NCBI RefSeq assembly: GCF_001685485.1
Contig: NZ_BDEL01000001.1
Location: forward strand, 2,539,501-2,603,500
Length of the DNA stretch: 64,000 bases
Source: Formosa haliotis
Lineage (GTDB): Bacteria > Bacteroidota > Bacteroidia > Flavobacteriales > Flavobacteriaceae
Direction: 5' to 3'
The first letter of the stretch is position 1. The number at the start of each line of letters is the position of its first letter. The position numbers were made by a program, and so were the translations under genes. The notes beneath the pieces are model-generated. The model worked only from the letters and a program-made list of their open reading frames with translations. It searched no databases and was not told the DNA's origin. Positions 10,627-53,627 of the stretch are shown one piece after another.

Positions 10627-11234
10627 ATGGCTTTCGAATTACCGAAATTACAATATGCTTACGATGCATTAGAACCAAATATCGATGCTCGTACAATGGA
10701 AATACACCACACGAAACATCACCAAGGATATACAAACAACTTAAATAACGCAATTGCTGGCACAGACTTAGAAGGAAAATCTATTGAAGATATTCTTACT
10801 GGTTTAGACATGAGTAATGGCGCTGTTAGAAATAATGGCGGTGGCTTTTACAACCACTCATTATTTTGGGAAGTAATGAATCCAGAAGGAAAAGGTGTTT
10901 TATCTGGCGACTTAAAAGCTGCAATAGAAAATGCTTTTGGATCTTTTGATGCTTTTAAAGATGCTTTTAGTAAAGCAGCTGCAACACAATTTGGTTCGGG
11001 ATGGGCTTGGTTATGTGTAAACAAAGGCGGAAAAGTTTCTGTTTGCTCTACTCCAAACCAAGACAACCCTTTAATGCCAGGTGTTGAATGCGACGGAACT
11101 CCAATTTTAGGATTAGATGTTTGGGAACATGCTTATTATTTAAACTACCAAAACAGAAGACCAGATTATATTAATGCATTTTTAATGTTATAAACTGGAA
11201 CGAAGTTGAGCGTCGTTATGCTGCGGCAAAATAA
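10627..11234 (+). CDS. Fe/Mn superoxide dismutase (3' end frameshifted)
   Basis: Cytoplasmic dismutation of superoxide. Metal ligands are visible: MEIHHTKHH (first His), FYNHSLFW (second His), LDVWEHAYY (Asp and third His); QFGSGWAWL is also typical. As written the frame ends at 11193 after DYINAFLML, giving 188 residues instead of the usual ~202. The normal C-terminus (NVINWNEVERRYAAAK and TAA at 11232-11234) is present one frame away. One extra T in the T5 run at 11179-11183 joins the two and gives 202 residues with the usual AFFNV sequence. The coordinates give the restored gene. The missing base is probably a sequence error. Fe versus Mn use cannot be decided. Confidence 0.9.
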
Positions 11235-11250
11235 GACACTGAACAAATAA

Positions 11251-11290
11251 AAAGAGGGACTGTATTTAAAAATACAGTCCCTCTTTTTTT
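11251..11290 (+). terminator. strong intrinsic terminator of superoxide dismutase
   Basis: A 17-base-pair perfect stem (11251-11267 with 11270-11286) with a very short loop is followed by a run of seven or more T. It starts 17 bases after the restored SOD stop, which supports 11234 as the real end of the gene. Confidence 0.85.
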
Positions 11291-11309
11291 GTAATCCTAT
11301 TTTAAATAT

Positions 11310-50307: not shown

Positions 50308-51543
50308 GTTTTAAATGGTTAATCGGTTTAAAAAACAACATAAAAAACGAGTAAAAGAACGAAAATACCATTACGCCTTGACTGCGCCCTAAAAAACTTT
50401 CACTTAAAGAAAACATAGTAATTATGACGAAAAAATGTAGTGCACCTTCTTGTAACTTGGTAAGTTTAATAAATAGGAATAAAACGAAGATATACACAAT
50501 TAGTCCTAATAATCCATTACACACAAAAAATTCTAAAAATTGATTATGAGCATTATAATTCTTCTTTAAAGCCAGATCAAATCCACCATTGTAATAAGCC
50601 CGCCTATAGACCAATCGTGCATCCCCAGAACCTACTCCTAACCATAAACTGTCTTTTTCTTTGAAGGCATAAACTATTTCTCGCCAACGTTCAACTCTTT
50701 CGATAGAAACCTGGCCATCGGGACTAATAATTTTTTTAAACTTAGTTCCTAAATAATCAAATTTAATTGATAAAAAACCTATTACAACAAGCAAACTTAT
50801 TAATAAAACAAATAGTTTAATACTTGTTTTTTTAAACACATAAATAAGGAGGATTACTAAAAGCGTTATAACACCTATTCTACTATTTGTTTCTATCAAA
50901 AAAGAAAATAGGGAAACAACACAAGAAATAAAACGATACGATTACTTCGCATTTTTGCGAACCTTTTATCAAATAGTAAAGCACTAATAAAAAACACAAT
51001 TAACACAGCAAAATAACTAGGATGACCATCCAATGGTTTAACTAAATTCCAATCGGTATAAATCCAATTAAAAAAATAAGTTGCTTGTTTAAAATAGTTT
51101 TCTCTTGATAAAATAGAAGTAAAAATATTACACCAACAGATTACCATACCTACAAATAACCCTATACCCAAAGCTAAATAGATATGTTTTAAATTATAAT
51201 CTTTCTTTCTATGAGAAAAAACAGCTAATGGTATTAAAAATAGAGGCACTACGCGTCCTACATCTTTCTGAACTCTCAGTATATCTTTAGACAAAAAGAA
51301 CCCAATTAAAAACATTAAAAAAACTAGTAACAAAGGAATCAATAGTTTTTTATTACGTTTTAAATTCTCTAAACCATTATGTTCTTTAAAAATAAATATC
51401 GTACTTAATATAAATAACCACAATCCAATGGTATTAATTTTTAATAATAGGGGTAGTGTCCCTACAAAAAAACAGGTAGACCATTTAAAAAATATATTTT
51501 GCCAAGAATTATTTAGAAAGTAATTTTTTATATCGAACATCAT
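50297..51543 (-). pseudogene. O-antigen ligase family protein, split by a one-base frameshift
   Basis: Joins polysaccharide to lipid A-core at the periplasmic face. Two frames as written: 51543 down to 50896 (several membrane helices and the periplasmic segment ending FPYFLF) and 50899 down to 50297 (IETNSRIGVITLLVILLIY..., then YNAHNQFLEFFVCNGLLGLI, the conserved NxHNxxLxxxxxxG block). One extra base in the A6 run at 50898-50903 joins them and restores the SR motif helix, for 415 residues. The ATGs at 51543 and 51540 are preferred over the TTG at 51555. Probably a sequence error rather than real loss. Confidence 0.85.
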
Positions 51544-52513
51544 ACGTGTTTTCAAATGTTAATTTTTTAAAAAAAGACTGTAATTCTAAATATTTACTTT
51601 CATCTATACATTGAATAACCTGATGTACATTTTCTAATGTCTCAAGCTTATTAAACAAATAATAATCTTTTCCTAGCAAGGTTTGTAGTGGCAAATGATT
51701 TTCAGTAAAAAAAGGTAATTGTAAACTTATAAAATCGAGTACTTTTATGGGAAATGTTAAATCATCATATTCATTCCTTGGTCTAGTATGCATTGCAAAG
51801 GCGACATTATGTTGTGCTAAAAACCCAGGTATTTCATCATGTTTTATACAATTAATATGAATATTAGTGTTTTCCAAATCGGCTTTTAAATTAGAATCTC
51901 CAGAAAGCACAAAAAAATTATAATATGAAGAATACCTATTGTAAAACGCCATAAACAAATTAAAACCAGAATTTTCATAACGCGTACCCCCCAAATAAAG
52001 TAATCCCAATTTTTTACTAAAATCGGGTTTAATAGCACCTGCGTCACTTATTAATGTCCCTGGTGGCAGATTGGTATATTCTCTCCTTGGAAAAAATTTA
52101 TTTTTATCAAAAAAAACCCTACCCATCTCTAGTGTAGGAAACACCATAGAGGTAGAGATAAGCGTTAAATAAAAATTACTACACTTATTAAAAACTAAAG
52201 TAATTTTACTTCTTAAACTAGCGTAACTTTCTGGGAAAAGCTCAATATATATATCGCGAATAAACACAATTACTTCTTTTGAATATAATCGTAAAAAAAA
52301 CAAACAAATAATATCTACAAAACTCAATCTATTTGTTGCAGATTCGACATAAACAACATTTATTTTTCTAGGTTTAATACTCCTAAATAATTTATTCCCT
52401 TTTTCAATTACAATATCATTGTGTTTTAAAAACACTTTTTTAAACATGGTTATCCTTGTTTTAGGACCACCTGAAACTTTTTGTAAATTAGGTACTATAA
52501 ATAATATATTCAT
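51509..52513 (-). CDS. glycosyltransferase-like protein (GT-B fold)
   Basis: A 334-residue soluble protein. It starts NILFIVPNLQKVSGGPKTRITMF, a GT4-like N-terminus with the Gly-rich GG loop. A second Rossmann-like half contains LGLLYLGGTRYENSG and FAMHTRPRNEYDDLTFPIKVLDFI, in the place where GT4 enzymes have the E-x7-E donor motif; here the motif is not canonical. A divergent retaining transferase is likely. Its ATG overlaps the restored stop of the polymerase gene (TAATG). Confidence 0.72.
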   Translation of the reverse strand: MNILFIVPNLQKVSGGPKTRITMFKKVFLKHNDIVIEKGNKLFRSIKPRKINVVYVESATNRLSFVDIICLFFLRLYSKEVIVFIRDIYIELFPESYASLRSKITLVFNKCSNFYLTLISTSMVFPTLEMGRVFFDKNKFFPRREYTNLPPGTLISDAGAIKPDFSKKLGLLYLGGTRYENSGFNLFMAFYNRYSSYYNFFVLSGDSNLKADLENTNIHINCIKHDEIPGFLAQHNVAFAMHTRPRNEYDDLTFPIKVLDFISLQLPFFTENHLPLQTLLGKDYYLFNKLETLENVHQVIQCIDESKYLELQSFFKKLTFENTYDVRYKKLLSK

Positions 52514-53627
52514 TAAACAGTAGGCTTATAAGTCTGGTTTTTGTAAATTATAAAATACGGTATAAGTAAATAAAAGAAATAATTAAAGTAATGTATGGAT
52601 AGTATACAGGTAATAAATATCAAAACTAAAAACCTAATTTTGCTTTAAATGGGGTAATTCTATACATTAGATATAAATGACTCAAAATAAATATCATAAA
52701 TAATGTCCAACCTCCTCGGTGGTATAGATAATAAAAACCATTATCTATTTCCTGAAAACTATAGGTTCTACTTAAGGACACAGCAATAGGGTTGTATCTA
52801 TAAATCTGAGAACTTGCTCCAAAACCTTCTCCAAATAACTTTTTAAACGGGCCGAAATTTTCTTTTGCAACAATCTGATTAAAATCATCTAGGCGTGTTT
52901 TTAAGCTTCCATATTCCCATGGTCTATACACATATTTCATTTTTGATGACACCAAATCTGGTACGAAAGGTGAATTTAAAAACCAAAGTACTATAATAAA
53001 CGTTAAAATTATGGCTGTAAAATAAATTGGGTTAAATACTTTTTTAAGATTAATTACTAATAGTGTTACTAAAACAGAAAAAACAGCTAAGTTCATAAAA
53101 TTAGTAGTTAAAGCTATACTTACCAATCCTAATAAGGAGGCTATAATAAGTTTTCTGTCAAATGGTTTGCCTTCTAATAAATAGTAAAATAATAATACAT
53201 TAATAGCAATAATCGCTGGACCGTAAACTCTTCCTCCAAACCCTATAGTTTTATAACTCCAAATATTAGGAAACAAATTAAAATATAGTAAAATATAAAT
53301 TACGAAAACAGCAACATTTATATGAAATAAAAGCTTAACATAATCAAATTTCAAATTTATTAAACAGAGAAAAAAGATGAATGAGAAGCACTGAAACTTA
53401 ATATCTATAAGAGGAGTATCGTGATTGTAATAAATTCCTAAACACAAATAAAAGGCATACACTATTATAGCAATTATATAATATTTTGGAACTCTAATCT
53501 TGCCTCTTTTTTTAAAAAAAACTATACCTAACAGAGTTAATAAAAGGAATAATACTAATGGATTATAATTATTTACTCCTTGAAGAAAGAACAATAGAGA
53601 GAGTATTATGTATATTATTTTATTCAA
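52513..53627 (-). CDS. O-antigen polymerase-like membrane protein (Wzy; 3' end frameshifted)
   Basis: A protein of ten or more membrane helices with a periplasmic loop rich in Gly and Tyr (KKLFGEGFGASSQIYRYNP), as in Wzy polymerases. As written it stops at 52626 after FKAKLGF (333 residues). Adding one base to the A5 run at 52628-52632 continues it with FLVLIFITCIL... for a further membrane segment and a stop TAA at 52513-52515 that overlaps the next ATG by one base, giving 371 residues. The exact gene junction strongly supports the restored frame. The start is TTG at 53627. Confidence 0.8.

What the first reader, a model, noticed from the sequence alone, without database searches (positions are those of the whole stretch)
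10627..53627. Six genes each lose exactly one base in a homopolymer
sod (T5 at 11179), fabH (C7 at 13793), atpG (T5 at 26489), atpB (T6 at 30988), the O-antigen ligase (A6 at 50898) and the polymerase (A5 at 52628) are each broken or shortened, and one extra base in the run gives a family-length protein (202, 331, 286, 359, 415 and 371 residues). All events are -1 and all are in mononucleotide runs, about one per 10 kb. Seen directly in the frames; the inference is residual homopolymer undercalling in the assembly rather than gene decay, because essential genes are hit. Other genes in the same genome may be silently truncated.
Basis: partly seen in the sequence, partly recalled or inferred. 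Interest (0 to 1): 0.75.

Follow-up and report, generated by a model that had tools for sequence, protein, structure and literature searches.

The report
Long-read assembly errors breaking genes
Six genes in this marine bacterium look broken most likely because the published long-read genome sequence misses single bases, not because the genes are dead, so the finding is an ordinary data-quality problem.

Summary
All six breaks are in the deposited sequence: intact relatives run across each one, and the two sides differ by one missing base. Two more breaks lie within 100 kb on either side (a purF-like gene and a 562-aa gene), also -1, so 8 of 8 share one sign. Five same-genus genomes gave five such events in 723 kb of conserved coding DNA (three +1, two -1), against 6 in 119 kb here. 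The genome is one contig of 4,305,801 bp, the exact published length of Formosa haliotis MA1, sequenced on PacBio RS II; no short reads are mentioned (PMC5114390). Single-base homopolymer deletions in PacBio consensus are documented (561 in one E. faecium assembly, PMC4888979). Single-copy atpG, atpB and sod are hit; mutS and mutL are intact; a published gene table leaves 111 genes that are neither coding nor rRNA/tRNA, against 0-36 in seven other strains. No reads were available. It is an artefact of a known kind and scores low.

The parts
10627..11193 (+). sod (Fe/Mn superoxide dismutase), called 188 aa; break at about 11178-11184 next to T5 at 11179; relatives 202-223 aa by first start codon
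   Evidence: Pfam Sod_Fe_N and Sod_Fe_C, the latter stopping at profile position 91 of 102; relatives' tails match in another frame; only Sod_Fe_C match in the genome
13767..14741 (-). fabH (beta-ketoacyl-ACP synthase III), called 324 aa; break at 13793-13797 at C7; relatives 331 aa
   Evidence: Residues 1-316 and 316-331 of 331-aa homologues match in two frames; 5 of 5 same-genus relatives have no run at this place
26422..26850 (-). atpG (ATP synthase gamma) N-terminal piece, 142 aa; break within 26455-26491, near T5 at 26489
   Evidence: PF00231 positions 1-125 of 285; relatives' residues 1-132
25991..26425 (-). atpG C-terminal piece, 144 aa counted from the first start codon
   Evidence: PF00231 positions 143-285; relatives' residues 121-286; no other PF00231 match in the genome
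29926..30954 (-). atpB (ATP synthase subunit a), called 342 aa from an internal GTG; break near T6 at 30988; relatives 359-382 aa
   Evidence: Homology reaches 30996 in the ORF's frame while the relatives' start lies in another frame; only PF00119 match in the genome
50896..51555 (-). O-antigen ligase N-terminal piece, 219 aa; break at about 50899, near A6 at 50898
   Evidence: Aligns to residues 25-236 of the intact 440-aa homologue in L178
50297..50899 (-). O-antigen ligase C-terminal piece, 200 aa
   Evidence: Wzy_C PF04932 positions 12-149 of 149; aligns to residues 237-412 of the L178 homologue
52626..53627 (-). Polysaccharide polymerase-like membrane protein, called 333 aa; break at about 52629-52644, at A5 52628; full-length homologues mostly 350-380 aa
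   Evidence: Two-frame matches from 58 of 60 homologues tested; no Pfam family over its cut-off, so 'polymerase' rests on locus context and on a few database names (O-antigen ligase domain-containing)

Best explanation
The six genes are intact in the organism. The deposited assembly, identified by exact length as Formosa haliotis MA1, was built from PacBio RS II reads, and its consensus lacks single bases, mostly where a short run of identical bases was called one base short. Each missing base shifts the reading frame and makes a gene look truncated, split or late-starting. Shown: the frameshifts, their common sign, the intact relatives, the same pattern outside the window, the exact length match and the published sequencing method. 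Inferred: that the molecule itself carries the missing bases, because no reads were available.
For: Intact homologues cross all six breaks. 8 of 8 events in 264 kb are -1, two-sided p = 0.008; the relatives' events are 2 of 5 -1, Fisher p = 0.035. Rate in conserved coding DNA: 6 in 119 kb against 5 in 723 kb of five same-genus genomes, p = 0.002; four of those five events are in one genome, G003. At least 7 of 8 breaks lie at or beside a called run of 5 or more. atpG, atpB and sod have no second copy. Behind the break the proteins are about as conserved as before it in the five same-genus cases where both sides can be compared. mutS and mutL are open. The genome has 4,305,801 bp in one contig, the length printed for F. 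haliotis MA1, PacBio RS II, SMRT Analysis 2.3, no short reads mentioned (PMC5114390, whole text). In another PacBio consensus Illumina reads revealed 561 single-base homopolymer deletions (PMC4888979, one passage). In a long-read test assembly most indels were false deletions, most often after runs of four to five, A and T above G and C (PMC12007338, passages). Table 1 of PMC12943765 (passage): total minus coding minus rRNA minus tRNA genes is 111 for F. haliotis and 0-36 for the seven other strains (my arithmetic); it lists 25x coverage and CheckM completeness 95.07%, the lowest of eight.
Against: No reads were available, and no second sequence of this strain was among the 120 FabH rows listed; the nearest from other genomes is 95% identical. 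A PacBio assembly of E. coli EC958 differed from a 454 draft by only fifteen single-base indels, most of them blamed on the 454 data (PMC4134206, passages), so the platform alone does not guarantee such errors. The two full 16S copies compared show no indel, and one 23S length difference is shared between copies, so the rRNA gave no support; the sample is too small to count against. In fabH and the purF-like gene the relatives have no longer run at the break.
Confidence: 0.96

Rival explanations
1. True gene decay: the sequenced culture carries real -1 slippage mutations that inactivated these genes, perhaps in a hypermutator.
For: Natural indels also favour homopolymers, and polysaccharide genes are often lost in culture (both recalled). 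fabH has other family members. Related genomes hold a few such shifts too, real or not.
Against: Single-copy atpG, atpB and sod are hit in a bacterium described as aerobic (PMC8847386 abstract); no second break was seen in these genes and the sequence behind the breaks is conserved; all events share one sign; mutS and mutL are open.
Confidence: 0.02
2. Mixed case: most breaks are assembly errors, but one or both surface-polysaccharide genes (ligase, polymerase) are really off in the sequenced culture.
For: These two lie in a stretch without a clear same-genus DNA counterpart, and loss of such genes is usually tolerated (recalled).
Against: They show the same sign and context as the housekeeping breaks, and the pieces match intact homologues without further damage.
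Confidence: 0.03
3. Recoding: programmed ribosomal frameshifting or transcriptional slippage at A/T runs makes full-length proteins from the shortened genes.
For: Most runs are A or T, the substrate of slippage in AT-rich genomes (recalled).
Against: The called runs at the breaks are 4-7 bases, shorter than usual slippage tracts (recalled); same-genus relatives encode sod, fabH, atpG and atpB without a shift, 5 of 5 each; unrelated genes are hit with no shared signal beyond the run.
Confidence: 0.005
4. Phase variation by slipped-strand mispairing in the runs.
For: Two surface-polysaccharide genes are among those hit.
Against: Runs are too short for usual contingency loci (recalled, about 8 or more); four of six window genes are housekeeping; relatives have no run in fabH.
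Confidence: 0.005

Closest known systems
Single-base homopolymer deletions in a PacBio consensus (E. faecium ATCC 700221, PMC4888979, one passage seen)
   Same: PacBio data with SMRT Analysis; [quoted passage not shown]
   Different: There 561 were shown by Illumina reads; here no reads are held and the estimate (about 130 per genome) is extrapolated from 8 in 264 kb; for at least one event here (fabH) the homopolymer place is not supported by relatives
Gene-fragmenting errors in long-read assemblies (Kastor, PMC12007338, passages seen)
   Same: False deletions prevail, most after runs of four to five, A/T above G/C, a few at non-repeated bases; found by comparison with relatives
   Different: The main test assembly there is nanopore data with within-species references; here PacBio data and genus-level relatives (about 82-86% DNA identity over the fabH-sod region)

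Membership tests
Residual long-read consensus indel error | Assembly made from long reads without accurate short-read polishing | tested here: met
   Exact length and contig number match PMC5114390; PacBio RS II, no short reads mentioned. The link is by length and genus, not by accession
Residual long-read consensus indel error | Intact gene in relatives, break by one base, sequence behind it conserved | tested here: met
   8 of 8 events; the purF-like gene rests on one relative
Residual long-read consensus indel error | Deletion bias | tested here: met
   8 of 8 are -1
Residual long-read consensus indel error | Association with homopolymers | tested here: met
   At least 7 of 8 at or beside a called run of 5 or more, chance 0.113 each; exact place not supported by relatives in fabH, unsettled in atpG and the purF-like gene
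Residual long-read consensus indel error | Accurate reads carry the missing base | not testable with these tools
   No reads of the strain are held
Hypermutator decay | Loss of mismatch repair | tested here: not met
   mutS (880-aa frame, profile 2-839 of 840) and mutL (620-aa frame, 1-553 of 555) are open
Phase-variable contingency loci | Long repeat tract in surface genes | tested here: not met
   Called runs of 4-7; 4 of 6 window genes are housekeeping
Programmed frameshifting or transcriptional slippage | Shift site shared with relatives that also need the shift | tested here: not met
   Same-genus relatives encode sod, fabH, atpG and atpB in one frame

The most novel reading that the evidence does not exclude
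The sequenced culture of this marine bacterium really had its O-antigen ligase and polymerase genes off through one-base slippage, while the housekeeping breaks are assembly errors.
Probability: 0.03. Interest if true: 0.25.

Novelty: not a real feature. Interest (0 to 1): 0.1.

Why it matters
The assembly is the published genome of the F. haliotis type strain and has been mined for fucoidan and alginate enzymes. Gene-absence, pathway or pangenome statements drawn from it may count intact genes as missing. PMC12943765 reports the most singleton clusters (755) for this genome; part of these could be split genes (inference).

Tried and rejected
Gene decay, recoding and phase variation: rejected as listed among the rivals.

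False leads of the frameshift scan. An event at +134.9 kb comes from an ORF on the strand opposite a gene start. Rows near G005 24.8 kb and G001 96.9 kb lie upstream of the starts, as does G004 161.7 kb. Of seven further single-query rows looked at, six lie upstream of or between genes and one (G003 224.3 kb) is a +1 event. In one search, 10 of 23 query ORFs checked were short ORFs (80-138 aa) overlapped 41-100% by a longer ORF, and one 83-aa ORF was overlapped 36%; these rows were dropped. The remaining single-query rows were not inspected, so the relatives' count of 5 is a lower bound. Under the narrower rule of two or more supporting queries the count is 4 here against 3 in the relatives, p = 0.009.

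A suspected broken epimerase at 59593-60276 has an intact N-terminus by eye. Homopolymer length tables do not separate this assembly from its relatives. The rRNA operon copies as internal control were inconclusive. The window's higher density than its flanks (4 in 44 kb against 2 in 75 kb of conserved coding DNA) is not significant, p = 0.19. The plasmid collection gave one weak hit of no use. The 80 named loci served only to place the family.

Full report
What was claimed.

Where the window lies. It is positions 2539501-2603500 of a one-contig genome of 4,305,801 bp. The closest named FabH proteins from other genomes carry the genus name Formosa (95% and 92% identity), and five same-genus genomes (G001-G005) are held. 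The genome announcement of Formosa haliotis MA1 (PMC5114390, whole text read) gives 4,305,801 bp in one contig, sequenced on PacBio RS II and assembled with SMRT Analysis 2.3, with no short reads mentioned. I take the window to be from that assembly; the match is by exact length, contig number and genus, not by accession.

The six breaks. I compared ORFs of same-genus relatives with the window in all frames and aligned the DNA. sod: relatives continue in another frame from about 11178-11184. fabH: residues 1-316 and 316-331 of intact proteins match in two frames at 13794-13797. atpG: relatives' residues 1-132 and 121-286 fall in two ORFs, and the Pfam gamma profile is split 1-125 and 143-285 between them. 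atpB: homology runs to 30996 in the ORF's frame, but the relatives' start lies in another frame, so the called ORF begins at an internal GTG; the automatic scans did not flag this one. Ligase: a 440-aa homologue in an unnamed family member (L178) aligns residues 25-236 to the upstream piece and 237-412 to the downstream piece with nothing between. Polymerase: 58 of 60 homologues tested match in two frames meeting near 52629-52644; one runs past the stop in one frame and one ends before the break.

Beyond the window. In 100 kb on each side the same test found two more: one at about -30.4 kb (its only fetched relative, 632 aa, matches purF TIGR01134 below the cut-off) and one at +72.67 kb (562 aa, no NCBIfam match), both -1. 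In all, 8 of 8 events have the same sign (two-sided p = 0.008).

Control. In G001-G005, 723 kb of conserved coding DNA gave five events that I accept after inspection: in G003 three +1 and one -1, in G001 one -1, and none in G002, G004 and G005. The window's genome gave 6 in 119 kb, p = 0.002 against all five genomes and 2e-4 against the four without G003 (1 in 547 kb). Ligase and polymerase are left out of this count because they lack same-genus counterparts. Not every single-query hint in the relatives was inspected, and atpB here was found by eye, so the contrast may be somewhat overstated; with two or more supporting queries required it is 4 against 3, p = 0.009. G003 is itself a one-contig assembly with shifts of mostly the opposite sign, which may be errors of another kind.

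Homopolymers. At least 7 of 8 breaks have a called run of 5 or more at or within 4 bases, where random deletions would have one in 11% of cases. This is chosen after the fact. Relatives have a run longer than the called one at the break in 3 of 5 (sod), 3 of 5 (atpB), 4 of 5 (atpG) and 3 of 4 (562-aa gene), but in 0 of 5 for fabH and 0 of 1 for the purF-like gene. In fabH the long run may therefore be a result of the loss rather than its cause, and in atpG the conserved codons also allow a place just outside the run. So 'mostly in runs' is supported; 'all in runs' is not.

Error or decay? atpG, atpB and sod have no second copy; the FabH C-terminal domain family has two other members in the genome. 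mutS and mutL are open. In the five same-genus cases where both sides can be compared, the part behind the break is about as conserved as the part before it (atpB has too little before the break). PacBio consensus errors of this kind are documented: 561 single-base homopolymer deletions in one E. faecium assembly (PMC4888979, one passage). A study of long-read assemblies found, in its main nanopore test assembly, mostly false deletions, most often after runs of four to five bases, and a few at non-repeated bases (PMC12007338, passages). Against this, a PacBio assembly of E. coli EC958 differed from a 454 draft by only fifteen single-base indels, most blamed on the 454 data (PMC4134206, passages), so coverage and chemistry matter.

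A genome-wide hint. Table 1 of PMC12943765 (passage) lists 3711 genes, 3542 protein-coding, 12 rRNA and 46 tRNA for F. haliotis. The remainder, 111, compares with 27, 25, 0, 27, 36, 20 and 22 for the other seven strains (my arithmetic; it includes other small RNAs, and the same paper's abstract gives different coding counts for two of those strains). Eight events in 264 kb extrapolate to about 130 in the genome, the same order as 111.

What could not be done. No reads of the strain are held, and no second sequence of the strain turned up among the 120 FabH rows listed. The rRNA copies were too small a sample and partly masked. In the two papers on F. haliotis fucoidanases that I searched for the words (PMC7698502, PMC8847386), frameshifts and sequencing errors are not mentioned; I did not search further for an earlier report on this assembly.

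Verdict. An assembly artefact of a known kind, most likely. Useful for anyone mining this genome, not a biological discovery.

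Noticed in passing
L105, about position 9600 (window coordinate about -30400): A gene whose intact 632-aa relative matches purF (below cut-off) is split by a -1 shift; only one same-genus relative (G005) was at hand.
   Followed up: yes
L107, about position 8667 (window coordinate about 72667): A 562-aa gene without an NCBIfam match is split by a -1 shift; intact in four same-genus relatives.
   Followed up: yes
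G003: L127 about 4283, L161 about 11772, and two more places in its fetched stretches: A same-genus one-contig genome carries three +1 shifts and one -1 shift in coding genes, mostly the opposite sign, which may point to a different sequencing method.
   Followed up: partly
L116, about position 19820: A likely -1 shift in a gene of G001 (acyltransferase-like by eye), next to an A-run.
   Followed up: partly
11624-11698: Flavo-1 RNA (RF01705), 61.8 bits, downstream of sod.
   Followed up: no
about 11304-11395: A stretch of about 80-95 bases, apart from Flavo-1, recurs at 85-95% identity once more in this genome (near L105) and at one to three places in many related genomes. No Rfam family reaches its threshold there. 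By eye the minus strand holds a short ORF; it could be a small RNA, a leader or a tiny gene.
   Followed up: no
56797-57000: By eye, a relic resembling the C-terminus of the protein at 53634-55028, readable in two overlapping frames, so itself shifted; it lies beside an orphan 105-aa ORF at 56477-56794.
   Followed up: partly
18192-23701: By eye, a LacI-type regulator, sugar symporter, xylose isomerase and xylulokinase cluster with open frames.
   Followed up: no
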